From NCBI GenBank assembly GCA_025449115.1, contig JAHLKC010000190.1:1-60992 (forward strand): a DNA stretch of 60,992 nucleotides, read 5' to 3'. The notes under the pieces are model-generated. The model saw nothing but the letters and a program-made list of their open reading frames with translations. It was not told where the DNA came from and did no database searches. Of the stretch, positions 16,985-35,241 are shown piece after piece. Both the position numbers and the translations under genes were made by a program. Position 1 is the first letter of the stretch, and every line of letters begins with the position of its first letter. This DNA is from Chytridium lagenaria. Taxonomy: Eukaryota; Chytridiomycota; Chytridiomycetes; Chytridiales; Chytridiaceae.

Positions 16985-17012
16985 TCCTCTTGGGATCTAC
17001 CCAAGAGCTGTC

Positions 17013-17034
17013 CTCTTGGGATAAATCCCAAGAG
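17013..17034. repeat. Terminal 10-bp hairpin of element 1
   Basis: CTCTTGGGAT-aa-ATCCCAAGAG is a perfect inverted repeat. Its right arm is the same word found at the right ends of both elements (22152 and 35059), so this looks like terminal signal sequence rather than chance. Confidence 0.6.
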
Positions 17035-17364
17035 CTGTCGCAGAAAAACGGCCTCATTCCGTCCCAACTAAGAACATGATTGGACAAATTATTAAAAATA
17101 AAAAAAAATTCATTCGTTAAAAGTCACGTGAGGCCGTCCCTACAAGACTCATCATTCGCTCAAAGTCACGTGACAGATGTGTTACACAAGCACCCAAATT
17201 ATTAATTATTGGCATAATAATATTTAATAAATAATATATTTATATGAATTTCCAAAATCTATTACTTAAAGACGATATCCTACATATATACTCCGACATA
17301 ATAATAAATAATGTTCCTTGTCTAAAACATCAACCAAGTCTAAAAAAATTATTATCTATGGCTC

Positions 17365-17404
17365 CTCCCGTAACGGGCATCTTCCTTCTTCCTCCCGTGA
17401 CGGG
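17365..17404. repeat. GC-rich palindromes in element 1, left
   Basis: CTCCCGTAACGGG (17365-17377) and CTCCCGTGACGGG (17392-17404), two slightly shortened members of the element 1 hairpin family in an otherwise very AT-rich stretch. Confidence 0.8.
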
Positions 17405-18239
17405 ACAAACACTCAAAAGTTAAAATGTTATGCTCAGGATATAACTCAGTAAAATACATAATACTACAGCAAATAAAAACGTGTAAATAAAAATAATTAT
17501 AATTATAAATGAATTGTAAAATAATATATAATAGAGACGACTCGCAACCACTACATTTGAATGTGCAATGCTGGTGGCAGAAAAAAAGGAAAGTCTTTAT
17601 TTATGCTGCCATGGTAAAAAGCTGTTTAACTTGCCCAACACTTCACAAATGCCAGTAACATATTACTTTCACCATCCTTCCGTAAAGTATCAGGGTCAAC
17701 ATGTTGACTATCAGCGAGAACTATCCATATGGGAATAAGAGCCCATTTCTCGTCTGTCACATTGATAGAAATCCTAACTAAAATAATGTTGCTTCCATGT
17801 AAAGGCAGCTTTCCTTCATTTTAGAACCGGAAGGCTTTGTATTTTATATGGACTGACTATATTATCACGTCTGTCATACACTTGCGTCATGTTTTTACGC
17901 CCTGCATAGCTGTCTCCGTTCCTTTGCGCAAGCCGGCTCATTAGTCTGTAAAGTGTCATTGCTGTTAAAAAACATACTTTCTTAATATCTAACCGCTAGA
18001 TGGATTCACACATGTGCGTCATGTCCTCCCTCTTTCCTCCTGCAAATTTCATCCATTTCACCGCCGACTTTACGTCATTGTTCATATCCTCCTCGTGGTT
18101 GGTGGTGCTATTTACTTGCTTCTAAATCTCTCTTGTTTCTTTCGTTAACATCTTAATGAGGATTTTTCCAACATCATCTGGGGCGGCATTGTCCTCCTGT
18201 GTATTAGGTGCCGCTACCGTGCGCGTCGCAATCCGTTTG
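17405..18239. other. AT-rich remnant, no gene resolved
   Basis: Part of element 1. Short open stretches are interrupted by stops in all frames. It may include decayed 5' exons of the accessory gene whose recognisable part starts near 18240, but I cannot align them with confidence. Confidence 0.4.
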
Positions 18240-18570
18240 CCGTCTGAGCCCTACTTCTGCTTTGCTGAGCATAAATCATTTGACGGCACTAACAAGGCAT
18301 CTGACAACAACGAACATATTCTACCAGCAAAACCGGAGTGTAAAAGACGTAAGAAGACAAAAGACGGACCTGGCTGACGATCCGTTGCGGTTTTAAAATA
18401 GTATTTAGTGATTGTAGATCAAACTAGCTATATTTCTGATACTCACAACTTCAGCAGCTTCCTGCCACCCACCAAAACCGTGTTTCTTAGTAGTGCTGAC
18501 TTGGTGTTCAAAATCGTTGCGAGGGCTGGGGTTTTTTGTGTCGACCTTGATATGTAATAAAATGTTGACA
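18240..18570 (+). pseudogene. Accessory-gene fragment, copy i
   Basis: Encodes FCFAEHKSFDGT, a basic KRRKKTKD stretch and LADDPLRF. After an intron-like gap comes VFLSSADLVFKIVARAGVF followed by V-D-L-D. The same series occurs at 20130-20460 (FAEHKAFDDT, RKRRKKASDED, SADSVFEIVARVGI) and, more diverged, in the accessory gene of element 2 (ITENDAFRS, RKRRR, DVLFEVAALYI, V-I-D-I-D). Only the middle of the gene is recognisable, and no start or end survives. Confidence 0.6.
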
Positions 18571-19173
18571 TTTTTAAGTGACAGAACTATTGCTTTTATA
18601 CATCTTTTCATTGAAATAAATATTTCTTATATTTTCAACAAACCTGTCCACCGAATTTTAGTCTGGTTTTATTTTTTCGGGCATGTTCTGCATTTATTAC
18701 ATAAATCCTCATTCTACCTCATAAATGCAATTACATCTTTTTTCAACGTTGACACATCTTTGCTCTACGGTGGGTACGTTCTTTATTCATAATTCAATTC
18801 TAAACAATACCTTAACATCCGAAACTTCTTCTTTCTACTACCCTCCCTACTTCGATGAAGCACCAAAATCCTGGCCCTGTTTCTATCGTCGACAACCAAA
18901 CAGAGCCACTATAAATTTCTGCATACTAGACGCCATCCCCTTCAAACGTTCCTCCCCTTCCTCACTTAGAGTTGTCTTGGACCGCACCTACAAAGCACCG
19001 TATCTTTGGTGGAAAACACGTTCCTATGTTTGATATTCTGCCATAATTCTTGCCAATAGGAACAATATGTAAGATCAATTTGATTTTATAATTATTTTAC
19101 TTACAACATCTTACCAACCCAAACTTTTTAAACATTGATTCAAAACTCAAACTTTTGAAACATTCATACAAAA

Positions 19174-19302
19174 CTCCCGTGACGGGAGCACTGAATTGAA
19201 CAAACAAACATAATATCGCTGTTCCTCCCGTGACGGGAAAAGTTTAACGTTGTATTAGAAATCCTGTTAATGTCATATGAAATTCCTCCCGTGACGGAGG
19301 AA
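19174..19302. repeat. Three GC-rich palindromes ahead of a helicase exon
   Basis: CTCCCGTGACGGGAG (19174-19188), TTCCTCCCGTGACGGGAAA (from 19222) and TTCCTCCCGTGACGGAGGAA (19283-19302), about 50-60 bp apart. They lie just 5' of the splice acceptor at 19397, so they are probably intronic. In the third copy both arms changed together, extending the pairing. Confidence 0.85.
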
Positions 19303-19397
19303 CACACATACATGGTTTTAATGCAGTTACTTTCACAATCCTTTGCCTAAACCTTGGTTGTTATACTGTAATCTTAATAATATTTCCTAATTTTCAG

Positions 19398-20130
19398 CGC
19401 ACTAACTCCTCCACAAGAGCAAGGTTATGTTGTGTTCAGAAAAATAAACTTTACAGTGTTCCTCACACAAAACATTCGGCAACGGGGCGATCCAGCTTTC
19501 ACTAAAATAGTGAGCAGCCTTCAATATAGAATGCTGTCAGACAGTAATATGGCCCTGTTTAACACAAGACATATCAGCGACCCCGACTTTGTTGTTGGCC
19601 CAATAATAACAGACGTTGCTGGAGTAGGATACTTTCAGCCAATGGTGTGTGCTTTTAATGAAGACAGGTCAGTTATTGGCCACAAGATGCTTTTGGATAT
19701 GGCTCCTAAGGACAGACCGATACACGTTTGTCTACCTGACCTTTCTAAAAGGCTTCTGTTTCGTCAAGGAATGCAATGTCTTCTTTTTATTGCTTCCATG
19801 ACTACCTCACACACTTCATTCCTTCCCTCTTGACTTCCTTTGTTGGCATGCCCATCTTGTTTATAAGAAAATCCGATGGGCAGAAGATATCTAATGATGC
19901 CGAGACAGGAATCATTGTTGCCAAAGGGGCAATAGCTACAATTGTCGATATTCAATTGCATGACAACGATAAACGGCATGAACTCACTGGTGGGGCAGAT
20001 GGCGACACCGACATCTGTCACTTGCATCAACTGCCACAATTTTTATTTGTGAAGATGCGTGGAATATGTGACGTCGTCTTGTATGAAGATTTCCCTTATG
20101 GAGATGGAATTTACGAAGAGTTACCCGGCA
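19398..20130 (+). pseudogene. PIF1-type helicase fragment of element 1
   Basis: After an acceptor at 19397 the frame reads INFTVFLTQNIRQRGDPAFT, CAFNEDRSVIGHKMLLDMAP and, after one shift near 19780, DYLTHFIPSLL, GMPILF, IVAKGAIATIVDIQL and CDVVLYEDFP. This aligns along its length with 33760-34400 of element 2 (INFCVFLTENMRQRDDP, DHITDFIPMTL, LIPKGSVATIVGVQL, NKVLYKG). P-loop and Walker B are missing. Near 20130 the similarity switches abruptly to the accessory gene. Confidence 0.75.
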
Positions 20131-20940
20131 AAGGAGATATCCATATCTGCTTTTGCGGAGCACAAAGCTTTCGATGATACAGGCGAGACTTTGAATAACA
20201 ACGACAACATTCCGACAAATAAACAGGAAAGAAAACGACGAAAGAAGGCAAGCGACGAGGACCTGGCTGATGATCCGTTGCAGTTTACAAATAGCATCTA
20301 GTAAGTAGATATGGTCTTATTCTAGTTACTGATCAATCTTGTTTAACGCCTAGCTTACCTTCACCGGCCGAAATTGTGTTTCTTTAAAGTGCTGACTCCG
20401 TCTTCGAAATTGTTGCTAGAGTTGGCATTCTTCGCGTCGATCTCGACAACTCCACACGGCTGCGTTGGTCATGAGTAAGGCTTTTGGTAAAGACTACGGC
20501 GACAATAGCACCTCTATACCTGCCCACCTCGTGTTGCTTGCAACCTCATTACTCAAAACCCCACTGTTTTACCGTTGGCACGTCAATATTTCGACAAGAA
20601 TTGGGCTTTACCGGCGGATGCTGTTTTTTACGTCTTCAAGTCACAGTAAAAGTTTATACACGTTGGTGGTTTTTAATATTGTTCTTTTCATCCTATACAG
20701 TTTCAACGTGTGTGCCAATCTGGAAGAGCGGCATCTTTGCAAAGTGTTATTGACTCATTACCGACTCACGAGGTAAAGGATTTCCTGGATGGTTGCCGTT
20801 CAACCTTTTCAGAACTTGCTGCTTCATGGTACCGTCTCTTTCACACGTCTTTGCATTTCTTAACCGCGAGAGCGAAACTTCGTATTCCATCGGTCTTCGT
20901 GTTGGCGGTCAATTGACTGCGCGACTCTGGCTGACGAAAA
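20130..20940 (+). pseudogene. Accessory-gene fragment, copy ii
   Basis: Reads KEISISAFAEHKAFDDTGET, a basic KRKRRKKASDED, LADDPLQF, then after an intron SADSVFEIVARVGILRVDLD, WALPADAVFYVFKSQ and, after another intron, CRSTFSELAASWYRLF with IGLRVGGQLTARLW. These match in order exons of the element 2 accessory gene: ISISQITENDAFRS, RKRRR, DVLFEVAALYI, STCKHLFRSLATSWRSL, IGLDYTMVAELL. Internal stops are present. It sits between two parts of the helicase, so element 1 is a rearranged chimera or an insertion product. Confidence 0.6.
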
Positions 20941-21594
20941 CACAGTGCTTTTACGCGGGATAATCGGTGAGTACATTTCATGGGTTGAACCTCTTTAACT
21001 TGAAATACATAAGGACTTCTATTTGGAACCTGTGCGACTAATGACAAGGCGATGCTCGAATTGTACGAATATGGAAATGACTGTGGTTGTTAACGAGGTA
21101 CTTTTCGTTAAATATATTTTGCTTGCTAAACGCCATAAACAGATCAAAGACATTGTAAATCACGTCTGCGTGTGCCATGCCGTTCCCTTACGAACTGGAC
21201 CGGGAAAACCTATTGTTTGTGATCATCATCTTCTTAAACGTGAATGTGCTTGTCGGTAACCTACGCGTTATTTTGCCGTACCTTATGCTGAATTTGAAAA
21301 TATTCTTTCTTCGCGTGAATGTTCTTGTTCGTAGCCAATGCGTTATTTTGCCAAACCTTATGCTGATATTGAAAATATTGCAATAAATGCTCTTTGTATT
21401 CAATAAGCTTTGAACTATGTACTGACTAACAACTCTATTCCAGTATAAACCAGGTTAGTACACTGTTGATTTAATCTAAATTAAGTCGACTTTCATTCCC
21501 GTGACGGGAGCCTTACAAACCGCTGTTACAATGCTACCTCCCGTGACGGGAGCCTCATTTCTATTGTAATTGCTAACGATTTCTTTTTCTCTAG
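20941..21594. other. Remnant and intronic sequence of element 1
   Basis: AT-rich, no supported exon. It holds an imperfect direct repeat (21250-21290 and 21310-21350, each ending in TTATGCTGA-TTGAAAATATT-like sequence) and two hairpins (listed separately). A TGCTAAC branch-like site precedes the acceptor at 21594. Confidence 0.45.
21496..21552. repeat. Two GC-rich palindromes before last helicase exon
   Basis: TTCCCGTGACGGGAG (21496-21510) and CTCCCGTGACGGGAG (21538-21552), 42 bp apart, placed immediately upstream of a splice acceptor at 21594. This is the same form as the other element 1 copies. Confidence 0.85.
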
Positions 21595-21813
21595 CTTTCT
21601 GGACCAAAAACAACGACAACATCGAAGGCACTGACTCTTCTGGAATGGATAACGCAGGAAGACACCACCTATTACTTCACACCAACAGAAGAAACCGTTA
21701 TTGCAATGCAATATTTAATGTCGTTGGTAATGACGCCAACATATGCTGCTGACGAACAATGGCAATATTTCATCGACTTCATACCATCCAACAATGCTCC
21801 GAATCTTGTGTAA
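21595..21813 (+). pseudogene. Helicase C-terminal exon of element 1
   Basis: Frame KTTTTSKALTLLEWITQEDT, then YYFTPTEETVIAMQYL and MTPTYAADEQW, stop at 21811. It aligns with the C-terminus of the element 2 helicase (TTSLKTLTLLTRLTREDVNY, FAPDEDNMNAM, IMPPYSTQ). The motif V-VI region expected just before it (LQGQT...VALSR in element 2) is absent from element 1. Confidence 0.7.
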
Positions 21814-22646
21814 CGTCGTACAACGAAAAGGACTCTAAAAAAAAAAAGTTGCAAAGAAACTCAACTTAACAAATATCATTCAAGTAAGATAGAAACATGA
21901 AAAATACAAGTAAATATACATACATCTTCTACATATGTATATAATAATATAATAAGAACAACAAAAATAAGAAAATAAAAAGTATTTATAAAATTATTAA
22001 AGATAGAATAAAATAAAAATTAAAAAAATGATATGCAATGCAATGCAAAAAAAATAAAAATAAAAAAAAATTAAAATATATTTCTTCAATCTCTTGAACT
22101 CTTCCACCTATTGCTTCAATCTCTCAATACTCTCTTCTCCCTACAAAACACATCCCAAGAGGTTATCGGCGGAGCTCAGTCGAAAGAAATCCGTCTCTGT
22201 CCGTTCCTCTAAGGATGATGATTGGCTAAGAGAGGGATATGTAATGAGTAATATGTGATGAGTAATACGATGTTATATTTATATATTATTTATATATAAT
22301 GAGGAAAATAAATAAAATTAACAATAGTGATATCATATATTATTATATGGAAATTATTATACAATAATAATATTGTATATATTACCTAATATAGAAATAT
22401 GTAATATGTATTATGTGGTATTTATTTATTACATACTAATAAAATAAATAAATATGAAGAATAATAAATAAAAAAATGGTTACACCTGGGTCACGTGACA
22501 TGACATCATTTGAAGGTAACACGTTAGAATGAAAATGAATGACAAACACGCCACAAGGTGTGCAATCGCGTCATATGTAGAATGCAATACAAGTATTTAT
22601 AGAGTCAGTTAGAGCATGTCGTTGTAAAATGTCTCAAATACGACTA

Positions 22647-24415
22647 TCCCGTCGATGGGGGGTTCCGTACTGGTAATTATATGAAGGAATATACTTTCGA
22701 CCATATTTGAGTCTCACATTGCCGGAATTAGACGCTCCCGTCAACGGGAGTTACATTGTTCGCGTAACAGGTTCCCATTGCCGGGGTTTTGTTACCAAAA
22801 ACCCGGGATAAACGTCGCAATCATATAACTCCCGTCAACGGGAGTTGTGTTATTCGCGGCTCCCGTCGACGGGAGTTGTGTTACTCGCGGCTCCCGTCGA
22901 CGGGAGTTTATTATTGTGTAGATCGCTGTAACACTTCTTATTTACGGCTCCCGTCGACGGGAGTTGTTTTATCGAATACCAAAAACCCGGGATATACGTC
23001 GCAATCATATAACTCACGTCAACGGGAGTTGTGTTATTCGCGGCTCCCGTCGACGGGAGTTGTGTTACTCGCGGCTCCCGTCGACGGGAGTTTATTATTG
23101 TGTAGGTCGCTGTAACACTTCTTATTTACGGCTCCCGTCGACGGGAGTTGTTTATCGAATACCAAAAACCCGGGATAAACGTCGCAATCATATAACTCCC
23201 GTCAACGGGAGTTGTGTTATTCGCGGCTCCCGTCGACGGGAGTTGTGTTACTCGCGGCTCCCGTCGACGGGAGTTTATTATTGTGTAGATCGCTGTAACA
23301 CTTCTTATTTACGGCTCCCGTCGACGGGAGTTGTTTTATCGAATACCAAAAAACCCGGGATATACGTCGCAATCATATAACTCCCGTCAACGGGAGTTGT
23401 GTTATTCGCGGCTCCCGTCGACGGGAGTTGTGTTACTCGCGGCTCCCGTCGACGGGAGTTTATTATTGTGTAGGTCGCTGTAACACTTCTTATTTACGGC
23501 TCCCGTCGACGGGAGTTGTTTTATCGAATACCAAAAACCCGGGATAAACGTCGCAATCATATAACTCCCGTCAACGGGAGTTGTGTTATTCGCGGCTCCC
23601 GTCGACGGGAGTTGTGTTACTCGCGGCTCCCGTCGACGGGAGTTTATTATTGTGTAGATCGCTGTAACACTTCTTATTTACGGCTCCCGTCGACGGGAGT
23701 TGTTTTATCGAATACCAAAAACCCGGGATATACGTCGCAATCATATAACTCCCGTCAACGGGAGTTGTGTTATTCGCGGCTCCCGTCGACGGGAGTTGTG
23801 TTACTCGCGGCTCCCGTCGACGGGAGTTTATTATTGTGTAGGTCGCTGTAACACTTCTTATTTACGGCTCCCGTCGACGGGAGTTGTTTTATCGAATACC
23901 AAAAACCCGGGATATACGTCGCAATCATATAACTCCCGTCAACGGGAGTTGTGTTATTCGCGGCTCCCGTCGACGGGAGTTGTGTTACTCGCGGCTCCCG
24001 TCGACGGGAGTTTATTATTGTGTAGGTCGCTGTAACACTTCTTATTTACGGCTCCCGTCGACGGGAGTTGTTTATCGAATACCAAAAACACGGGATTTAC
24101 GTCGCAATCGTAAACTCCCGTCAACGGGAGTTGTGTTATTTACGGCTCCCGTCGACGGGGGTTTATTATTGTGTCGGTCAATGTAACACTTCTTATTTAC
24201 GGCTCCCGTCGACGGGAGTTGTTTTTATCGAATACCAAAAACACGGGATTCCGTCGCAATCGTAAACTCCGTCAACGGGAGTTGTGTTATTTACGGCTCC
24301 CGTCGACGGGGTTTATTATTGTGTCGGTCAATGTAACACACCCCAGAATGGTCGGCGGGTGTTTATGGATCTTTGTACGATTTCACGAAATATCATAAAC
24401 TCCCGTCCGGGAGTT
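22647..24415. repeat. Higher-order satellite of perfect palindromes (about 184-bp unit)
   Basis: About eight units of 183-187 bp, exactly 184 bp for several, each starting near CCCGGGAT. Each full unit has four hairpins: one CTCCCGTCAACGGGAG and three CTCCCGTCGACGGGAG, separated by short fixed spacers. I count about 22 perfect CTCCCGTCGACGGGAG sites. Two unit types alternate: A (GATAAACG with TGTAGATC) and B (GATATACG with TGTAGGTC), in the order A-B-A-B-A-B-B, then two degenerate, shorter units (24090-24340). Single degenerate hairpins flank it at about 22650, 22733 and 24398. Translations across it are artefacts of the repeat. Confidence 0.95.
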
Positions 24416-24475
24416 CTGTGTGTCGCTGGCATAATTTTGGATGGAAGATCATTTTATTAACACGTAACTTTATGT

Positions 24476-25699
24476 TTATATCAAATCACACGTTGTCATC
24501 CTCCACAAAATCCACTTGCGGTGACGTTGCATTTGTTCGTCGCGGTGGATCAATACAACCCAGTGCGGGTTAAATATCCAACCATTGCCCTGGACGGATA
24601 TTGATGTCCCGACGATAACAACGTCCCCTTCGAATAGGTCTTCTTTTTGTGTGCTGTTACTGTTCAGTTTCGGAAGGGTTTCCATTTGACTGTACTTGAA
24701 GTATTCGTCTGCGTCAGACCGACCATCGTACATGGGCAGATATGGTTTGTTGTCTGATCTGCGTTTGATTTCGACCCACGGCGGTACTTCGGCGGTTGTA
24801 TTGCTGTTATGGGTCAATGGAGAAGAGCCATGATAACCGCCTTTACTTGGTGTCGTTTGGGCTGCGGTCGATTTCGGTGGCCCTATGTTTGACTATGATT
24901 ACTAAAAACTATATAATGTATTGACTTACATATCGTGCTATTGAGTGTGAAGTATTGTGAATTAGCGTCAAACACCGGAAGTCCGCATCGAACACCAGTT
25001 GATTGCGATATGTTCTTGAGAAGATTCGTTAATTCGTTTGGATCCATCAAGACACTTCCGCCAAATCTTGATTTCCACAGGATTCTTCCGTCGGACCGGA
25101 GGATTTGTTGACGATATTCAACGGATTGCCTAGTTAGTATTCTGACGGGTAATGGAATCACAACAGGAAATGCTTCGTCCTTTATAGTTATGGTGGCGGC
25201 GTATCCGATACCGTTAAAGTATTTTCTAAATATTGACTTGGATTCTTTTACACCCTTCGGCGTGCACATGTGTCGATTGCCATGTGTTTTTGACCAGTTG
25301 TTGAATGTTCTAATGCATACATGTTACTTGGATGTTTCTTAAAAACACTGATCAGATCAACCTACTTGTGCAGTTTACTGTATTCCATAATTTTCGCTGG
25401 ATGGTCCTTGCACATGAATGCCAGTCATATCCATCGCATCTTTCGCATTTTCTGATATTGCCGGTGGTTTTACATTTTCTTGTTTGATCGGAACATCCCT
25501 GGTGCTCGGGCCGGTGGTCTTACGGATGATTCGTTGATTGTTGAAGTTATGTCGCTGGACGTATCTCGTCATGTTCGTTTTGGTGTCGGCTTTCGTTGTT
25601 ATCACAGTCGTTAAATGGATCAGAACGTTCTGAATCATGGTAGGAGTCTTCACACGGCATCGGTTCCTTCGAGTTTCTCAATTTTCTAGGGGTTCGCAT
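24476..25699 (-). CDS. Uncharacterised accessory gene 1 of element 2
   Basis: Not recognised. Start MRTPRKLRNSKEPM at 25699, an acidic His/Asp/Asn-rich N-terminus, and a possible zinc site in one frame (CERCDGYDWHSC, about 25430). An exon then reads SIFRKYFNGIGYAATITIKD, VVIPLPVRILTRQSVEYRQQ, NELTNLLKNISQSTGVRCGL (25269-24930), followed by an intron and a C-terminal exon with VPPWVEIKRRSDNKPYLPMY, GDVVIVGTSI and FNPHWVVLI, stop at 24476. Splice sites are present (GTAAGT near 24930). It is divergent from accessory gene 2 with about 200 bp between starts. No homologue was seen in element 1. It could be a captured host gene or a transposition helper. Confidence 0.5.
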
Positions 25700-25729
25700 T
25701 TTTTTTTGGTGTACTCCCGCCGACGTCTG

Positions 25730-25792
25730 TTGCTTTTATTAAAAGGCTATAATATTCCGAGTTGCTTTTATTAAAAGGCTATAATGTTCCGA
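25730..25792. promoter_or_regulatory. Duplicated 31-bp TATA-like block
   Basis: A 31-bp sequence running from TTGCTTTTATTAAAAGG to ATTCCGA or GTTCCGA is present twice, 1 bp apart (25730-25760, 25762-25792), differing at one base. It lies between two divergent accessory genes, and TATTAAAAGG could act as a core promoter. The role is inference; the duplication is seen directly. Confidence 0.55.
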
Positions 25793-25900
25793 CAATTTCA
25801 TTGGTATTTTTTTCTATATTTTTTTATTCTCCGTATTGTTTCACTATTTTGTTCTTTTTTTTTATTTTTAATACAACACTTATTTATCCGACCCCGTCTC

Positions 25901-27330
25901 ATGCTTACTGACGTTGTTGCGGATGTCGTTGCGAATATGTCGACTGATGACGACGACGGTGCTGAAACTGATGCACTCGTTGGTCTCTCCACCACCGAGG
26001 AGGCCTATAACGCCAACCTGTTGAAGCAGTTTACCGCTTACGCTGCCACATGTGTCCGCGACGCCGCCGTCAACCTGCTGACATCATTTGCTGTAACCAA
26101 TATTCAATGGCGAGGGAACAACTTTAAAGACCATTTTAAGAAGATGTTTCTCACAATCCCTAACAGGAAGAACTTTATTACTGCATTTAATCGTCTTATG
26201 CAGGCGGGTACTGATCGATCCGGATATAACAACACTAAGGTGGTCGCCTCGATCGAATTGGACTTCGTTTGTTGGCCTGCTTTCATTGATGATGCAAAAC
26301 CGTTTGAAGATAATGTTCGGTAGGCAGTTTCTTTATATTTTATACACGGACCTTCGTATTGATCATGTTTGTGTAGGATCTGCAGGGACTTCATGGAGAT
26401 CGCTTATCTCCGACAATACAAGAATGTTATATCCATTTCACAAATTACCGAGAACGATGCGTTTCGATCGGTAAAACCGACAAAGAAGGTACTCCGGATA
26501 ACGGCGGGCGGTGAGCCTAAACGTGCATCTACTAGGAAACGACGTCGCATTGCGGTATGCTGTCGAATCATCTATGTTTACTTACCCTTATATAGACTAA
26601 GGGAACGTTGGACGACGAAAATACTTCCGATAATGTGTCAGACCTTGACGGCTCAGTTCCACCGTCGCTAAGAATTAGGTGACTTTAATTTTCTATTTTT
26701 GGATCATTCTAAGAACCTTCCGGTCAGTACACCTTCGATTGCAGACGTCGAGTTTTTGTTGGCGTGTGATGTTTTATTTGAGGTCGCAGCTCTATACATC
26801 GCCTCATCTCGCGAGGTTATTGATATCGATGCGGTGGTAATATTTCAGAAGGTTTGGCCACACAAGAAAATAGAGGATTACACTCAGGCTGATGCCCTCG
26901 CATGCGCAATGGTATCAGTTAACTTCTACCTTGTTACCATTGCCGTCCAATTCCTTCGTGATCAGAACTCGTCATGGAGGTTATCCTGCTCTACTGTTAT
27001 GGGTAATTTTCGATCTGCTGTAAGTTTACGCATTTCAGTTTAAATTCGATTACAGTATAATTCATGTTTTCAACTGATATTTATTATATCTCATAGTATT
27101 TCAAGTTGGCTTCATCTTCTTCAGTGTCACGCAACATAGCGAATGCAAGTGTTCGCGCAAAAGTGTATTCTGTTGTCAAGCCCAACGATGCTGAAGACGT
27201 GCGATCTACATGCAAGCACTTGTTTCGATCTCTAGCAACGTCTTGGCGTTCGTTGTCAAGCTCTGACTCCCTCATTGGTCTTGATTACACGATGGTGGCA
27301 GAGCTATTGTTTTGCGGTCAATGCGCCTGA
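25901..27330 (+). CDS. Uncharacterised accessory gene 2, conserved in both elements
   Basis: Not recognised. Start MLTDVVADVV at 25901. Exon 1 contains LLKQFTAYAATCVRDAAVNL, KDHFKKMFLTIPNRKNFITA and ends near 26320. Exon 2 has CRDFMEIAYLRQYKNVISIS, TENDAFRS and a basic nuclear-localisation-like STRKRRRIA. Exon 3 is acidic (LDDENTSDN). Exon 4 (from 26710) contains DVEFLLACDVLFEVAALYIA and DALACAMVSVNFYLV. Exon 5 (from about 27098) has STCKHLFRSLATSWRSL and IGLDYTMVAELLFCGQ, stop at 27330. Introns are GT-AG and keep frame. Diverged matches at 18240-18570 and 20130-20940 in element 1 support a real gene family. The basic patch suggests a nuclear protein; function unknown. Confidence 0.65.
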
Positions 27331-27754
27331 CCGTACCTGACACCGAATCCCCTCAGCCGCTGTGTCTGGAGTACTTTGTGAGTAGTAAAAAATTTCTCGT
27401 TCACTGTTTTAATATCTTGTAGTGGGTACCACTTTGACGGGACCTGCTCGAATGCTTAACTCCACGTGTTTGTTGTGCCAGGTTTTGTCGCCAAACTGCA
27501 CACTTCGAACGGTATGATTTGTTGAATCGTTTGCTCATAGCTAACTTTTGCTTTTTAAGGTGAACAGCAGTTATAGCCTGCTGCCGTTAAGCACTTTGAA
27601 GGGTGATATTTTGTTTTGTGATAATCAGTTTCTGAACCATATGTGCGTGGCGTCTATGAATTGAGCATGTCAATAAAAAAAAACCCCGTTTTGCACAATT
27701 TTTGTTCTTGTTTTTATTTCTCCGACGAAACTGGCGCAATAAAATCTTCCACAA
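27331..27754. other. Spacer before the transposase
   Basis: Short non-conserved open stretches. AATAAA followed by A's at about 27670 could end accessory gene 2. The spacer ends in a T-rich stretch ahead of the transposase start. Confidence 0.45.
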
Positions 27755-27886
27755 ATGAGATGCAGTGCATGCAAACGGGAAGGCCATAAGCGATCAAGCC
27801 GCGAATGTCCGTACTTTATTAGATATTGCTTACGATGCGGTCGCTTTGATCATACTCGGTCTACAAGTAACCGCTGTTCTGGTATG
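27755..27886 (+). other. Two CCHC/CCHC-like zinc knuckles
   Basis: CSACKREGHKRSSREC (C-x2-C-x4-H-x6-C) is followed by CLRCGRFDHTRSTSNRC (C-x2-C-x4-H-x7-C). They form the N-terminus of the transposase and probably bind nucleic acid. An intron donor (GGTATG) follows at about 27881. Confidence 0.8.
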
Positions 27887-30800
27887 AAAACTTAAATCTT
27901 ACTTTAAACCTTCATGAACTTAAACCTTGAACCTATTTTAATCTGTAGGTAATGTCGCAGTGTCTGCCCATGGATCACTAGACCCATACCAAATTCTGTT
28001 GGTGATCATGATGTACATGGAGAGACCAGGCTGATTCGACGCAATGCCATTCTGAATGCCGGCAATGATCCATCAATGACCGACGGATTGTCAACTTCGA
28101 TACATGATGTCTTACCTCCCCTGGATGTCGTTGTGAGCCCTCCCAACCCATCTTCTGCATCGCGTAAACGGGAGCGAGTTCAGTATCGTCGTGCCATTCG
28201 CACAGCACAAGAGATGCTATCCGACCGCATACAAGATACGGCTAATCGACAACGCTTACGGCATTTGCAATCAACGGTTGCTTCTGCTGAGACTGCTTTC
28301 TTAGATCGATCAGCTCATAGAACGGTCTACAATCACGTATCTGCAGACGACCGTGGCTGCCCGCAATACCAGTCGTGCTGCTGAAGATCTTGCAAAACGC
28401 ACAATCAACTTGATGGATGATGTTCATCTGCACAACATGGACAAGACAAGAACATTTCATATCCCTACGTCTGATGATATCGACCGCGTCAGAAAAAATA
28501 GCGCGTCAATGCTTTGTTTGCAAGGTGTGCTGCATATTATATGTGCTGTTTGTGACCGTTACCTACTCCAATCTGCAACACGAACGCATGTTGTCACCGC
28601 AGAAGTTATTGACGCGTTGCTCCGACACTTGGAAGCTCCTGTTGACTTACCTTCCGAATTAGTACGCCAATACGATTGCTCTACCATATGTGATGCGTTC
28701 GCTGGACTGCTATTGAGTAAAAAAGGTACGACATATTCATACCATTATTTTTTTTCTACGGTTGTTGGAGAACCACCCATCAATTGGTGATGTTTCATAC
28801 CTCTATGTAACTCCCGTCGACGGGAGTTTTATGACTTCAACGTATACTTCAAAACTCCCGTTGACGGGGGATTAATGGCTACTTTTACATCTCGCGTCGA
28901 GGGGGCTTTATTGGCTACTTTAACAACTTCCGTCAACGGCGGTTTACTGGCTACTTTAACAACTCCCGTCGACGGGAGTTTGCTGGCTACATTAACAACT
29001 CCCGTCGACGGGAGTTTTATGATTGCGACGTATATCCCGTTTTATTGCATTCTTACCTTATCGTGTTTTATAGGTGTCATTGATTGTCCCGTAGGATTAA
29101 TACGAACGTGCGAGGAGTGCTGTTCGTCACTATTCTGTGACCGTGTCATGCCAAAGTATGCTATCGCAAACGGTCTATATATGGGTTACCTGCCCGATCA
29201 ATTCAGGATGATCACACGAACAGAGGAGCAGATGGTGTCACTTGTGACATCTTGCGCTTACCTATCAACCGTCACTGGTGGAACTACGCGAACAATCAAG
29301 TCACACCACTACTGTGTTAAGAATACTCGTGGGCCTATTATTAGGATGTTACCATCCACGTTGGTTGGGACGTGTCGCGTTGTCCTGGTGGGATCTATGA
29401 CGCCCTTGCAGAAAGCTGCTGTTCGTCAAAAATATGCAGTTAATCTTGATGGTGTGTGTCGTCCGTTCCTAACCTTCCTTCTCGCCAACCACAAGGATTA
29501 CTTTGATGTACTTAATACACTTGACAATGTTGAAGATAATGTTGGTAAGCAGAATCCTTGGTATTCTAGATTGTGTACTTACATTATTCACAGATCTTAT
29601 TGTTGACCGCACGGATGATAACACTACTGGGGAGACTCCACTTTCCGAAGCCGCCATGTCGCATATATTGGCGTCTTCATCTACTCATCACGCTACTGGC
29701 AGTATCATTACGCACGTCGAGAACGACGACATGACGTTAATTGACATAGAGCGGCAGACTTTGATACATCAGTTGAATCCAGATCATATATCGGAAGGGT
29801 TCATATGCTACAACTCAAATCAGTACTCGTCTGACCGCCGTCTTGGTAATATTGGTTGTATGTATCCATCACTGTTACCATTTGGAAGAGGCGGTCCAAC
29901 TGAGTCGCGAACTAAACCTCTCAGTGTTGAGTCTTGGATTCGCTACTGTTTGGATCGCCAAGGCAACAGTTTTGAACGGCATTATGGGTTTGTGATGATG
30001 GCGTATGACTTTGTTGCAACCAAATTGGCTTACGGTCGGATGCATCACACCCTATCCGTACGTAAAGAGGCTTTGTTGGCGGGACAGCTCAACTCGGACG
30101 TCATCAAGGACGTGATTCGGTACTCTGATAGTGTCTCGAGGGCCCAGAGAAATGGTACAGACCTACCACCAAAGCCAGATAACGTACGATCGGTTTTGGG
30201 CCTCCGTTCGGGGATAGAAGCAGGGGAACGCGCGTATTTAGGATCAAACGCTGCACGATCGTTTGCGAGACATCTCGCGTTTGGTCGCCTTCACCGTTGG
30301 GGTGTTTTCCAACTATTCGTTACACTCTGTCCCGACCCAAAAGGCATATACACCGTTGGGCATCTGGCAGGTGTTCTGAGTGAGTCGACGATCTCATCAA
30401 TTAATCATATGCTATTACCCAACGCTGCAGAGATGGTTGCAATAGCAGAGAGGCATCCAGCAAGTTCCGCAAAATATTATGACTACGTTGTCAATGTGTT
30501 CATAGAAAAGGTCCTTGGTTTTGACCCCGTATATCGAAAACCACAAAAGGCATCAGGTCTCTTTGGATATGTTCGGGGATATGTTGTTTCTACAGAAACA
30601 CAACGAGGTAAGCTCCACTTTCAAAGTTGGATTTAACACATCCTCCATATAAGGTAACATATATGCTCCACTTTGTTTTTTAACAGGTGGTACTTTGCAT
30701 GGTCACATTTTAATATGGCTTCATGGTTTCCCTAACACAAGTAATGCAATGCAGGACATGTTGCAGACTGATTCGGTTTTTCGACGACGTGTGCTGCTGT

Positions 30801-33800
30801 TTGCAGACTCCATATCAACCGCAGACGTTCCATTGCTGCCGCCAGGCGAACCTTGCCCAGCACGGTTGTGTCCAGGTTTCCTTGTGTCAGTATCAAAACT
30901 TCCTGGAGAAGCTTTCAAACGGCCCGTGCCAGGAGCTATTCCTGTCACTACATCTACATGCACAACGTGTAATACAGATTATGCGCACGTTGATGTTATC
31001 GACTCTGTTCTTCGCCAAGCTCGGACACCTGGATACTCTGTCACCCTCGATAACTTTGACTGCTCCGAACTTGAAATAGATTTTATGCATTGTCAACCAC
31101 CACAGGTTGGCGCTGTACCCTCATCAACACGTACGGCACTTGAGGTTACTATCATTGTTAAGAAGTATAATGTTCATTTTTGGACTCATGTGAGTTCATG
31201 TTTTAAGGTATGCTTAAGTAATCATCAAAATAATACCATACCGTTGCCCAATGTACTCGACGCAATTCCTAATATTTCCATTTCCTGAAAAGATAACGGC
31301 TCGCACACCCCGCGGGCAAGTCTGTCGAATGTTTTTTCCTATGCTGCAACCAAAGAAACATTTATTGATGACGACTTTGAACTTCATCTAAAGCGCTCCT
31401 GCGGTTCGGAATACACAAATCCCTTCAACCCAACCATTGCCTATCTTCTGCGCTGTAATCACGATATTAAACTTGTGGTGGGGTCAGAAACAAGCATTTG
31501 GTTGCATACATTTTGAAGTACACGCTAAAACCACAAAACGCCATCTACAACAACACTGCCTTGTGTGCTGCAGCTTTTGACAAGGCATTTAAAAAGGTTT
31601 CTTCGCATCCGGATCGAGTGACATGACGCCACGTCAAGTCGGATCCGCAATTCTTCGATCTGTTATGTACTCTCTCACTAGTCCCATGGAAATGGCCGCT
31701 ACCATGTGCGCACTCTTGCTTATACGCGGTGACAGCACGTATTGGAGTCACGATTCTGCTACGGTTTGTTTAGGTCCTGTGTTCAGTTGGATGGACAACA
31801 CAACGGAGGATGTTGATGTTACCATAACCATAATAATTCAACGACGCACCTTCAGACCTCACCTTCACACTAAACATGCCGCTGTCGATTACTGGCACCG
31901 ACCTGACACAATGGAGGACATGTCATTGCATTTGTAGTGGAAAATTACCACCTCACAACGGTCAAGGGACATTGGCGCCACACTAAAGCATCCCCATCCT
32001 AAGTCGGGTCGCTACATTATGTCAAAAATAAAGCAAAAGCGGTTTTGGTTTTGACTGGTCGTTACTCGAACTACCTGACATCACACACCTGGCTACAGGG
32101 GACATTGAACGTGAAACGTACTTCAAAATACTACTCGTTCTTTTCAAGCCCATCGATTTGGAAACTTGATCACAGTGGACGGACTTTGGGAGAATGCCTA
32201 CAATAACTTTGTTGCGGACAGCACAAGTTCATCAGTTTTGGATGCACTGTTGTTCAAGGAGAATGTTGACGGATTTCATATTAGTGCGCGTAATGACACA
32301 TCCAATTCTCAAACAAATGAGTGACGAGGATGTTTGTTTGCTGAATCATCCATGTGCATTTCCCGACCATCCGAATCAGATGCAAAATTGCCGTACCATG
32401 AGGATCATCACCAGAGACATGACATGGACCCAGAGGATGACAGTTGTTATCAAACCTTACAACCGAAAATGGACGCTACATATTTAGAACGTGAAGGGGT
32501 ATTCAATCAATTTCAACATAACCAACTCACAACCCTAGTACTGTAACGCGCAGCTTGATGAAATTCAGCGAAAAGTCGTCCATCTATCAATATTTGATGA
32601 TGCAGTACAGAGGTGTCCAGATGGAACACATACTTCTATGTCAGGACCACAGCATCGATTAATTCCTGAAACCTTTCACACCGGGTATACCGCGCTTACG
32701 TCCAACGACCCCACGATTGGAGCTCAAAACAATGGAACATCATATTTAAAGTGCGTTGAACCCCATCATGACCTCCCGTCGACGGGAGTCTTATATGTAC
32801 AACACTCTCCCGTCGAAGGGAGTCTTACATCTTTTATATACTCCCGTCGACGGGAGCTTATTGTTACATTAGCCACATACATATACTCACACTAATGACC
32901 TCCCTTTACAAAAGGACTCAACAATTATCAACCTCAACTCAACTAATTCGTCTTCATGAATCTTTGGCTCCGGTACCATACCTTAATCCATTGCTGATCC
33001 CTGAAAAAGACTGGATTCCGCCAAACAAGCTGAACGTTTGCATCCATTGCCAGCGTCTCCTCTTCGTTCAAGTTGAACTTTGGCAGCACTACGCGTTTGA
33101 AACAATAGCGGAAGTTTCTTTTTTCTTTCCTGACCGACGCCACCGACAACAGCTCTAACTTGCCAATGTATCAAGCCATCACGTCATTGTCTTCTCATGT
33201 TAAACATGCTATGAGTACCCAGATCATTGCATACATTGGAGGAGAAGCCGGCTCTGGCAAGTCGGCGGTAATCAACGCCCTGCTAACGTTTGTCTCCATC
33301 TGGCGTCGAAGGAATACACTTCAGACATCAAGTTTCACTGGATTGGCGCTATGATGGTTGACGGTGCCACCATACACTCACTGTACAATATTAATCCTAT
33401 GACGGGAAACATCGGGAATCCATCCACAATGGACAAAGACCGGCATGATGCGGTAAAGTTGAAGTGTGTTGATGAGATCTCCATGGTCAGTCAAGAATTA
33501 CTGGGTCAGATGGATCTCTCGTCACGCAAAATGGCTGGTGCGAGGGACCCAGAATTGGCCAATTTGGTGATGGGAGGAAAACACACCGTTTTCTTTGGTG
33601 ACTTCATGCAATTTCCACCAGTCGGTGGAACACCAGGTTCGTCCACTGTTAAATCCATTCCCATTGTACCTTCATCTACGAAATGCATATTTATTGTTAC
33701 ATTCTAGTATACCGAATCCCTACAGACGCATCAACACCACATCAACGGCAGGGATATCATGTTTTTGAAAGCATTAACTTCTGCGTCTTCTTGACTGAGA

Positions 33801-34828
33801 ACATGCGCCAAAGGGACGACCCCGATTACACCCGAATAGTTCGCGGTCTTCGATACGGACATATAACGACGTCTGATCTTGACGCCTCAATTCAAGATAC
33901 ATTGAAGATGTCCGATACATCCCGCCCCTAAACCGCTTGACGTTGCAAAGACCGGTTATTACGCGCCTGTTGTGTGTTCACGTAATGAGGACAGAGCCGC
34001 TGTCTCGCATCGGATGATCTTTGCTCTGTCTCCGCCGGAAGAACCCATTTACATTGTCCGCGCTTTGCCATACGACCACTCTCGCATGAAAGAGTCTTAC
34101 TATTCTTTGCCAGATCACATCACAGATTTCATTCCCATGACCCTGACGTTTTTTAAGGGCATGCCGGTCATGTTTACAGACAAGATCATTCACAAGGACA
34201 AGATCGGCGTGAGAGACACCGTGCTAATACCAAAAGGTTCAGTGGCGACAATAGTAGGAGTACAGCTTAACAAGGACGACATGCTCACAGGGGGTATGCC
34301 CTCTGACCACTCTGAGCACAACGTTCGACATTTGAAGAGCCTGCCGGACTTCATCATCGTCCACCTTCGTGACTGTAACAAGGTTTTATACAAGGGATGC
34401 GATCCTGGGATAATTCCCATTCGGCCAAAGCATCGGAGCGTTGAGATGAAATTCAATGCCGGCCAAAATCCGTATATCACTTTGACACAATACCCCTTCA
34501 TCCCGTTCTTCGCCTGCACGCCAGAGAAGCTGCAAGGACAGACACTTAAAGACGGCGTCTCGGTGTTGAATCTGATGCTGAGATCCTATGGTTTGCCCAA
34601 GGCTGCGCTTTACGTAGCGCTGTCACGGACAACGTCATTGAAGACTTTGACTTTATTGACACGCCTTACAAGGGAGGATGTGAACTATTTGCACCGGATG
34701 AGGATAACATGAACGCGATGAGAATACTTGCTGATAAGGTCATCATGCCACCATATTCAACACAGAGTGATCTTACCGCATTTAATGCATGGAAACGTGA
34801 TAATCATCTCCTTATTACACAACAGTGA
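27755..34828 (+). CDS. Helitron-like Rep/helicase transposase, several frameshifts
   Basis: Composite gene from MRCSACKREG at 27755 to a stop at 34826-34828. Order: two zinc knuckles, a Ser/Arg-rich linker, DUF6570 cysteine domain (about 29074-29640), Helitron_like_N Rep (about 29700-31900) and PIF1 helicase (about 33150-34828). In Helitrons this protein nicks and joins DNA through HUH and tyrosine residues and unwinds it with the helicase for rolling-circle movement. All key motifs I can check are present: HGH (30698-30706), YILKYTLK (31507-31530), GGEAGSGKS (33238-33264), DEISM (about 33470) and VALSR (about 34618). In-frame introns lie at 28726-29073 and 30608-30686. One-base shifts occur near 27975, 28370, 29560, 31495, 31620, 33350 and 34680; whether it is intact depends on whether these are sequencing errors. 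Confidence 0.85.
28726..29073 (+). repeat. Intron carrying a 36-bp hairpin minisatellite
   Basis: Donor AAAAG|GTACG (28725/28726) and acceptor TATAG|GTGTC (29073/29074) join SKK to GVIDCPVG in frame. The 348-bp intron holds a perfect AACTCCCGTCGACGGGAGTT at 28809-28828, then five units of exactly 36 bp (at 28853, 28889, 28925, 28961, 28997). The last two are perfect palindromes and the middle two are degenerate. The fixed spacer is like GGCTACTTTAAC. Confidence 0.85.
29074..29640 (+). other. DUF6570 cysteine-rich domain
   Basis: CEECCSSLFCDRVMPKYAIA, NGLYMGYLPDQF, the segment ending CAYLS, RVVLVGSMTPLQK and FLLANHKDYFDVL match the pattern of DUF6570, a domain found directly before Helitron_like_N in fungal and animal Helitron proteins. 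Its role in transposition is not known. Confidence 0.8.
29700..31900 (+). other. Helitron_like_N Rep nuclease region
   Basis: Family landmarks in order: GCMYPSLLPFGRGG, WGVFQLFVTLCPDPKG, AKYYDYVVNVFIEKVLGFDP, GLFGYVRGYVVSTETQRG, then across the intron GGTLHGHILIWL (HUH motif H-G-H). Further on are DFELHLKRSCGSEYTNPFNP, LRCNHDIKLVVGSET, AYILKYTLKPQ (two tyrosines plus Lys), KVSSHPDRV and QVGSAILRSVMYSLTSPMEM. The catalytic residues expected for a Y2 HUH nuclease are retained, although one-base shifts separate the pieces at about 31495 and 31620. Confidence 0.85.
31901..32770 (+). other. Linker region between Rep and helicase, frames broken
   Basis: Open pieces such as FDWSLLELPDI (about 32050) and the segment around 32334-32560 (DEDVCLLNHPC, HHQRHDMDPEDD, then FNQFQHNQLTTLVL) are consistent with the variable acidic linker of Helitron proteins. 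No domain is assigned. Stops occur in all frames, so some introns or errors remain unresolved. Confidence 0.45.
32773..32856. repeat. Three hairpins in the helicase-proximal intron
   Basis: CTCCCGTCGACGGGAG (32773-32788), CTCCCGTCGAAGGGAG (about 32806-32822) and CTCCCGTCGACGGGAG (32841-32856), about 34 bp apart. They lie between conserved coding pieces and are probably intronic. This is the element 2 form of the palindrome. Confidence 0.85.
33150..34828 (+). other. PIF1-family helicase domain
   Basis: AYIGGEAGSGKSAVINALL (P-loop, 33226-33282), TGLA and MMVDGATIHSLY (33351), VDEISMVSQELLGQMD (Walker B), FFGDFMQFPPVGG (33593), INFCVFLTENMRQRDDP (33773), FIPMTLTFFKGMPVMF, LIPKGSVATIVGVQL, ACTPEKLQGQTLKDGV (34513), KAALYVALSRTTSLKTL (34594). 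This is the full PIF1 motif order. An intron separates QFPPVGG from the next block (about 33634-33707). One base appears missing at 33350 (the shift falls within GGCGCT), and another near 34685 splits VNY from FAPDED. Confidence 0.9.
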
Positions 34829-35241
34829 ATATATGTAACGTCCATCAGAACAACACCGGTCACGTGACCTGTTATTATTCACATTTACTTCAATTTTTTT
34901 TTTCAAAAATAATAATACATTACCACTCAACTCAACAACCCAGGATCAGGATCCATATCAAAAGTTGATACCTAGCTATCTGCCCCCACGACCACATTGA
35001 CTTGTAACGGCCTGTGCTGTGTGTCAATCAAACGACAAAGACGGACGGATCCCGTGGGATCCCAAGAGGCGATTCACGCGGAGCTCAGTTGGCATCCGTC
35101 TCCCTCGGTGACCAGTGCACAGCCCAATGAGCCCTCTGGCGTCACGCTTGCATGCTACTCGAGAACAATATGATCAAAGAAACGATAGCAAAGATATACG
35201 TAAAGCCCATCCTCAGGATTGTTTAATTCTAATCATTTTCT
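34829..35241. other. Right end of element 2 and junction
   Basis: AT-rich, with GGTCACGTGACC at 34858-34869, then terminal words ATCCCAAGAGG (35059), GGAGCTCAGT (35080) and ATCCGTCTC (35094) shared with the right end of element 1. GACGGACGGATCC and GGCATCCGTC around them could fold back. Host sequence with the membrane-protein gene resumes by about 35230. Confidence 0.6.

What the first reader, a model, noticed from the sequence alone, without database searches (positions are those of the whole stretch)
17365..32856. Two Helitron-like elements each carry their own 'dialect' of one GC-rich hairpin, placed only in introns and ends
In element 1 the non-coding hairpins read CTCCCGTGACGGGAG (five positions, 19174-21552, plus two shortened ones at 17365 and 17392). 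In element 2 they read CTCCCGTCGACGGGAG or CTCCCGTCAACGGGAG (28809-29016, 32773-32856 and the large array). They sit upstream of splice acceptors, inside a frame-preserving intron, or near element ends, and I saw none in exons. HUH nucleases are known to recognise hairpins, and bacterial REP palindromes are tied to HUH transposases (RAYT). A eukaryotic parallel, with a hairpin family co-evolving with its Rep protein, is a testable idea. Alternatives: splicing or RNA-structure elements, or satellite spread by gene conversion.
Basis: partly seen in the sequence, partly recalled or inferred. Interest (0 to 1): 0.87.

Follow-up and report, generated by a model that had tools for sequence, protein, structure and literature searches.

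The report
Helitron introns carry family-coded hairpins
In a chytrid fungus, five families of Helitron jumping genes carry the same short GC-rich hairpin stem in their introns and flanking parts but not in conserved coding sequence, each family with its own loop, which likely lets each family recognise its own transcripts.

Summary
The stem CTCCCG...CGGGAG occurs 192 times in the 41.9 Mb genome against 9 for the reversed pattern. Of 189 places I could locate, 180 lie within 10 kb of a Helitron Rep or helicase match. There are five dialects, not two: TNA, TNNA, GNA, ANT and ANNT. The dialect is the seventh pair plus the size of the centre; the middle bases drift. Each multi-copy dialect is one Rep clade. 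None of 45 hairpin clusters lies in conserved coding sequence, 25.2 expected. The same site in different families never has the same commonest code (0 of 17), while different sites of one element usually do (27 of 32), mostly without shared flanks. Stems change less than their flanks (31/797 versus 215/2368). The hairpins are not the element's terminal palindromes. Asymmetric loops follow local transcription, including the divergent gene X, in three families, but not in a fourth; the fifth is undecided. I favour an element-encoded protein reading the hairpins in pre-mRNA. A DNA-level Rep code or spread without function remain possible; no binding was tested.

The parts
16999..22204 (+). Element 1: deleted and decayed TNA-dialect Helitron copy
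   Evidence: Homology to C265:10535-25993 and C2:262795-247162
17013..17034 (.). Palindrome CTCTTGGGAT..ATCCCAAGAG near the left end of element 1, unlike the CTCCCG hairpin
   Evidence: Seen by eye; end by homology
17365..17406 (+). Two shortened TNA hairpins near the left end
19174..19300 (+). Three TNA hairpins (one exact) in the intron before the helicase exon (site E), upstream of an acceptor ending TTTTCAG
21496..21552 (+). Two TNA hairpins (one exact), probably in an intron of a second copy of gene Y
   Evidence: conserved block from 21613
22401..35090 (+). Element 2: TNNA-dialect Helitron (left end could be as far left as 22172)
   Evidence: Homology to C202:70-11816
22735..24415 (-). 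Array of about 33 TNNA hairpins, 184-bp higher-order repeat, starting about 60 bp past the stop codon of the last X exon; asymmetric copies read TTGA in the sense of X
24491..24883 (-). Gene X, conserved last exon, divergent from Rep-Hel
24925..25206 (-). Gene X, conserved second exon
25988..26320 (+). Gene Y, conserved exon of unknown function
27755..27886 (+). Probable first exon of Rep-Hel with two zinc-knuckle-like motifs seen by eye (C-X2-C-X4-H-X6/7-C; the strict CCHC pattern found none)
   Evidence: Translation; aligned to C117
28726..29073 (+). Intron A of 348 nt holding TNNA hairpins at 28811, 28855, 28963 and 28999
29148..29510 (+). DUF6570 domain
   Evidence: PF20209, E 1.1e-15
29578..31207 (+). 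Rep part of Rep-Hel with HUH motif LHGHILIW near 30698
   Evidence: PF14214; motif scan
31208..31292 (+). Intron C, hairpin-free here but with hairpins in the GNA, ANT and ANNT families
31495..31540 (+). Y2 motif AYILKYTLK
32751..32914 (+). Intron D of 164 nt with hairpins at 32773, 32807 and 32841
32937..34691 (+). PIF1-like helicase exons; Walker A GEAGSGKS near 33241, Walker B CVDEIS near 33459
   Evidence: PF05970
35047..35062 (.). Palindrome GGATCCC..GGGATCC near the right end of element 2, unlike the CTCCCG hairpin

Best explanation
Five families of chytrid Helitrons share one GC-rich hairpin stem in their non-coding parts, each with its own loop code, and a protein encoded by each element likely reads that code in the element's own pre-mRNA. 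Shown: the constant 6-bp stem, the five codes (TNA, TNNA, GNA, ANT, ANNT), exclusion from conserved coding sequence, joint switching of the code across sites of one element, and slower change of stems than of flanks. Inferred: that the stem is the common docking feature and the loop with the seventh pair gives specificity, so that coexisting families would not cross-react. Candidate readers are the N-terminal zinc-knuckle-like exon of Rep-Hel, gene X and gene Y; none was tested.
For: Genome-wide 192 versus 9 in the reversed control. Outer loop letters kept, among hairpins with the family's loop length: TNA 38 of 38, TNNA 52 of 53, GNA 28 of 34, ANT 15 of 20, ANNT 22 of 24, while the middle varies (6 of 175 hairpins have another length and are left out). 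Each multi-copy dialect is one clade of the Rep tree with 99-100% bootstrap; six labels need five changes, the minimum, as low in 0 of 200 shuffles. Same commonest code within an element at different sites 27 of 32, at the same site in different families 0 of 17 (exact loop 23 of 32 and 0 of 17). Flanks differ between most sites of one element, for example ANT A versus C and TNA A, E and right side. 0 of 45 clusters in conserved coding, 25.2 expected. Stem 31/797 versus flank 215/2368 differences, p 3.5e-7 over six related pairs. The seventh pair changes on both sides: T-A, A-T, G-C. Orientation in local transcript sense: GNA five of five sites in C31, ANT three of three, TNNA array and intron A. 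GNA loops mostly keep G and A on the sense strand while the middle base varies. Single stem changes in Rep sense: 22 G-U versus 8 A-C.
Against: In the TNA family the hairpins on the X side read mostly TCA in X sense (7 TCA, 2 TGA, 3 TAA), against the transcript rule. When X-side hairpins are turned to X sense, the G-U excess shrinks to 19 against 11 (hand re-sorting). In C20 the rightmost hairpins are inverted, and near the upstream end of C30 an AGGT and an ACCT copy stand side by side. A sister family with open Rep frames (C236, C3, C40) has no such hairpin in the stretches held and shorter gaps between the same exons, so hairpins are not needed by every Helitron lineage here. One hairpin (GCC, at site E) is shared by the GNA and ANT families and did not switch. 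No element protein is known to bind the hairpin; gene X has no recognised domain and its model is unusable.
Confidence: 0.4

Rival explanations
1. The HUH Rep protein reads the hairpins as single-stranded DNA during rolling-circle transposition, so each Rep clade has its own hairpin code; internal copies act as regulators or decoys of the terminal signal.
For: Dialects match Rep clades. In Helraiser changing the loop and the pair at its base acted like deleting the 3' hairpin, while swapping the stem kept about 90% activity (PMC4778049, passages). In the TNA family the X-side hairpins lie mostly on the Rep-sense strand.
Against: The hairpins are internal; near the ends there are other palindromes. 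In the GNA, ANT and TNNA families the orientation flips in the divergent gene. The helicase tree fits the dialects too, with weaker support for two of them, so Rep is not singled out. W2 and C202 share a dialect although DUF6570 and the first half of Rep are only 55-64% identical, against 99% in most of the helicase.
Confidence: 0.2
2. The hairpins have no function for the element. They are a satellite that multiplies inside the Helitron by template switching or gene conversion, is homogenised within each lineage, and survives only where splicing or non-coding position makes it harmless.
For: Array size differs between relatives: 13 versus 8 copies at site A in C67 and C31, about 32 versus 5 on the X side in W2 and C202. 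Spacers of sites A and E are similar in the GNA family. Absence from coding sequence needs no function.
Against: A freely homogenised unit should drift in the stem too; the stem is the same in all five families although their Rep and helicase parts are only about 30-60% identical. Elsewhere the hairpins of different sites share the 15-16 nt but not the flanks. Oriented loops and the G..A of GNA are not predicted.
Confidence: 0.27
3. The hairpins are double-stranded palindromic sites for a DNA-binding dimer, such as a silencing, insulating or transcription factor, with the loop as a spacer.
For: Half-sites CTCCCGT or CTCCCGA with a free spacer of one or two bases fit an inverted-repeat site.
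Against: GNA is not palindromic at the seventh position and mostly keeps its asymmetry (28 of 34). Loop orientation is biased. A host factor would not be expected to differ by element family.
Confidence: 0.1

Closest known systems
Helitron2-type fungal Helitrons (FoHeli, PMC5148889, passages read)
   Same: Rep plus helicase Helitrons of fungi; palindromes and inverted-repeat-like motifs near the ends
   Different: The hairpins in the passages sit at the termini; here 2 to 36 perfect hairpins per stretch lie inside, in introns and other non-coding parts, with a family code
Helraiser 3' hairpin (PMC4778049, passages read)
   Same: A Helitron hairpin in which the loop and its closing pair carry the information and the stem can be exchanged
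   Different: Single, near the 3' end, acts as transposition terminator; here internal and many, and it is the stem that is constant
Bacterial REP palindromes with TnpA-REP/RAYT (PMC6006769, passages read)
   Same: Short hairpins, each family tied to its own HUH protein family
   Different: REPs are dispersed between host genes and have a 5' GTAG/GTGG guide; these stay with the element and show no such guide
Retroviral Rev/RRE-type export elements and P-element intron control (recalled; for P elements only a search listing)
   Same: Element-specific reading of intron RNA to control splicing or export
   Different: No RNA reader has been identified here
Mitochondrial hairpin elements and GC clusters of fungi and sponges (search listings only)
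   Same: GC-rich hairpins in non-coding DNA
   Different: Organellar; no tie to a nuclear transposon family seen in the listings

Membership tests
Helitron (Rep-Hel rolling-circle transposon) | HUH motif in a Helitron-like Rep domain | tested here: met
   PF14214 E 5.8e-7; LHGHILIW in W2, LHAHIVIW in C67
Helitron (Rep-Hel rolling-circle transposon) | Two-tyrosine Y2 motif | tested here: met
   AYILKYTLK in W2, AYICKYTMK in C67, C117, C31, C265; not found by the pattern in C2
Helitron (Rep-Hel rolling-circle transposon) | PIF1-like helicase with Walker A and B | tested here: met
   PF05970 E 8.2e-10; GEAGSGKS, CVDEIS
Helitron2 subgroup | Asymmetric terminal inverted repeats and terminal hairpins | tested here: inconclusive
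   Shared end blocks with palindromes near them; exact ends and empty sites not determined
Bacterial REP/RAYT system | Tetranucleotide guide (GTAG/GTGG) 5' of the hairpin | tested here: not met
   Flanks listed vary and show no such constant guide (read by eye)
Bacterial REP/RAYT system | Hairpins dispersed through host intergenic DNA | tested here: not met
   180 of 189 located places within 10 kb of a Rep or helicase match
RNA-reading code (Rev/RRE-like) | Hairpins in introns, in transcript orientation | tested here: inconclusive
   Met in GNA, ANT and TNNA; X side of the TNA family against; ANNT undecided on the X side
RNA-reading code (Rev/RRE-like) | Element-encoded protein that binds its own hairpin | not testable with these tools
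   Needs binding assays

The most novel reading that the evidence does not exclude
Five Helitron families in one fungal nucleus share a hairpin alphabet: one fixed stem and five mutually exclusive loop codes (TNA, TNNA, GNA, ANT, ANNT). Each code is read on single-stranded RNA or DNA only by that family's own protein. This would be a self/non-self recognition code inside the introns of a eukaryotic DNA transposon, for which I found no precedent in eight searches.
Probability: 0.38. Interest if true: 0.92.

Novelty: new variant of a known kind. Interest (0 to 1): 0.75.

Why it matters
If read by element proteins, it would show how related transposons sharing a nucleus keep their machinery separate, a question hardly touched for Helitrons. 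It gives five natural hairpin codes with a constant stem, which makes specificity directly testable by swapping three or four bases. If it is instead homogenisation without function, it is a clear case of concerted change of a 15-nt hairpin across unlinked introns mostly without its flanks, which also needs an explanation.

Tried and rejected
Terminal transposition hairpin: rejected, because element ends by homology lie outside and other palindromes stand near them. Coding repeats (the frame is open through intron A): rejected, because the flanking frames also join across 28726-29073 without a stop, and no cluster falls in conserved coding blocks. Freely mobile hairpin or REP-like spread: rejected, because few copies lie away from elements. 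Of 189 located places, 9 are not within 10 kb of a Rep or helicase match: C10 (1), C30:9-13 kb (3), C32 (1), C93 (2, contig end), C120 (1), C253 (1, contig end). Two of the 180 are doubtful: C76:86391 lies 5.3 kb from a Rep of another Helitron class, and C3:203938 lies 8.4 kb from a helicase remnant. I could not read these eleven. Three of the 192 were never located. Distances were taken by hand from the call listings, and no random-placement control was run for them. Phage or viral source: two scans of viral contigs found 14 contigs with two such hairpins near each other, 13 of them with 62% GC or more and none with Rep or helicase similarity in the stretch held. Protein search with the W2 Rep ORF found nothing. 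AlphaFold of the last exon of X gave mean pLDDT 39.7 and was not used. The G-U versus A-C test is suggestive only. Copies are related; outside the X side and collapsed by hand it is 14 to 5, or 14 to 7 if two copies near the upstream end of C30 are counted. With two stem changes it is 20 G-U to 12 A-C with 43 others. The coding control defines coding by conservation between families, so an unconserved coding stretch could escape it. The strict zinc-knuckle pattern found nothing in 12 stretches. One search gave no exon map because of a wrong program option and was redone. Literature: eight searches of open-access papers, most with capped lists, showed no report of family-coded intron hairpins in Helitrons.

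Full report
Setting. The window is contig C190 of a 41.9 Mb genome in 356 contigs. The nearest listed relatives of a host gene in the window are proteins of the chytrids Dinochytrium and Phlyctochytrium, 85-88% identical over 82% of the query, so the host is a chytrid fungus. The two elements of the finding are Helitrons: Rep (PF14214), DUF6570 and PIF1 domains are found, and HUH, Y2, Walker A and Walker B motifs are present in element 2. Element 2 spans about 22401-35090. Element 1 (about 16999-22204) is a deleted copy of a 15.5 kb element present at C265 and C2.

Observation. The genome holds 192 perfect CTCCCG-N0-5-CGGGAG sites against 9 for the pattern read backwards. I located 189 by loop-specific searches and fetched sequence. 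Of these, 180 lie within 10 kb of a Rep or helicase match, two of them doubtful; distances were judged by hand from the listings.

Dialects. I read hairpins in local gene sense in 12 element stretches, one mismatch allowed, 175 hairpins. Among those with the family's loop length (169), the outer loop letters are kept while the middle varies: TNA 38 of 38, TNNA 52 of 53, GNA 28 of 34, ANT 15 of 20 (three of the other five G..C), ANNT 22 of 24. The dialect is thus the seventh base pair (T-A, A-T, or a G.A mismatch) together with a centre of one or two bases. In the Rep tree of 20 copies (of 28 tried; 8 had too little Rep) every dialect with more than one copy is one clade with bootstrap 99-100; ANT has one copy. 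The six labels, 'none' included, need the minimum of five changes, and 0 of 200 shuffles do as well; three rows have long branches. The helicase tree of 15 rows also needs the minimum of five changes, but its support for GNA (36) and ANNT (90) is weaker, and a decayed hairpin-free copy, C110, falls beside GNA.

Placement. No perfect hairpin of 129 lies in a block conserved between families. Clustered within 250 bp there are 45 clusters, 25.2 expected in such blocks, P 1.5e-17 for none if independent, which the copies are not. Mapping exons onto element 2 shows shared sites: A (before DUF6570), B, C (inside Rep), D, E (inside the helicase), an intron of the divergent gene X, the region 3' of X, and the right side. 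At site C the exon ends TTTAAG|GT and AG|AT are seen in five of eight stretches printed, with or without hairpins. In element 2, introns 28726-29073 and 32751-32914 join open frames.

Concerted switching. Taking the commonest loop per site in one element per family (site ranges set by hand), the code is the same for 27 of 32 pairs of different sites within an element and for 0 of 17 pairs of the same site in different families. Flanks of the hairpins mostly differ between sites of one element, though GNA spacers at A and E resemble each other. One hairpin with loop GCC at site E is shared by the GNA and ANT families with its flank gtga and did not switch. Between copies the stem differs at 31 of 797 and the 25-bp flanks at 215 of 2368 aligned positions over six pairs. 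Two pairs carry most of that signal (C265-W1 and C67-C31); C265-C2, W2-C202 and the two near-identical pairs are not significant alone, and some copies are used twice.

RNA or DNA. In GNA (five sites), ANT (three sites) and TNNA (array and intron A) the asymmetric loops read the same in the sense of whichever gene they lie in, although gene X runs opposite to Rep-Hel; a single weaker ANT copy on the X side reads the other way. In TNA the sites in Rep-Hel and the right side agree, but the X side is mostly the other way round (7 TCA to 2 TGA). ANNT is consistent in C63 and mostly in C30 and partly inverted in C20. Single stem changes in Rep sense give 22 G-U, 8 A-C and 16 other mismatches; 14 to 5 after collapsing related copies outside the X side, or 14 to 7 with two copies near the C30 upstream end, and 19 to 11 if X-side copies are turned to X sense (hand counts). 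I read this as a moderate lean to RNA.

Against necessity. Families C236, C3:464 kb and C40 are a sister clade of ANNT, carry no such hairpin in the stretches held (10, 8 and 3.5 kb), and have shorter gaps between exon matches where ANNT has hairpin introns: 29-50 versus 294-315 nt at B, 38-42 versus 81-84 nt at C (C236 and C3 against C30). So hairpins are an acquired or lost feature, not a part of every Helitron here.

Comparison. In the reconstructed bat Helitron, changing the hairpin loop and its closing pair acted like deleting the hairpin, while a foreign stem was tolerated (PMC4778049, passages). That is a precedent for loop-based specificity in a Helitron, but for one hairpin near the 3' end. 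Fungal Helitron2 elements have hairpins at termini (PMC5148889, passages). Bacterial REPs are tied family by family to their HUH protein and carry a 5' guide (PMC6006769, passages); no such guide is seen here. Eight literature searches, most with capped lists, showed nothing like intron hairpins with a family code.

Conclusion. The facts need something that holds the stem constant, lets the loop switch for a whole element at once, and keeps copies out of coding sequence. A co-evolving reader encoded by the element explains the first two, and the third follows if it acts on introns and untranslated parts. Homogenisation without function explains the second and third but not the constant stem. 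RNA is the more likely level, not the proven one.

Noticed in passing
window 22401-35090 versus C202:70-11816: Mosaic relation: most of the helicase and X is 94-100% identical, DUF6570 and the first half of Rep only 55-64%, later Rep 80-86%, as if part had been exchanged between copies of one dialect.
   Followed up: partly
window about 31480-31500: The reading frame of element 2 shifts between HUH and Y2 relative to C67, so this copy may be broken.
   Followed up: no
C265:13386-15011 and 23502-25094; C2 likewise: TNA elements carry two copies of gene Y about 73% identical, one before Rep and one after the helicase; the right copy has hairpins before a conserved block.
   Followed up: partly
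window 17124, 17165, 22490, 34860; L056:848; C30 and C63 near their upstream ends: CACGTG palindromes recur near element ends in several families, including one without CTCCCG hairpins (seen by eye).
   Followed up: no
C236, C3:463-471 kb, C40: Closely related Helitrons with open Rep frames and no hairpins, sister to the ANNT family; the helicase matches of C40 and part of C3 hold stops. A natural control.
   Followed up: partly
C31:230217, C67:22392, C117:68676, C45:166044, C7:419141, C27:292582: One GCC-loop hairpin (site E where mapped, in C31, C67 and C117) is conserved across the GNA and ANT families and escaped the dialect switch.
   Followed up: partly
window 22793-24163: Array is a 184-bp higher-order repeat of four hairpins (one TCAA, three TCGA), about 7.5 copies, 97% matches.
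   Followed up: no
window 27755-27886: Two zinc-knuckle-like motifs, by eye, at the probable Rep-Hel N-terminus; a candidate reader of hairpins.
   Followed up: no
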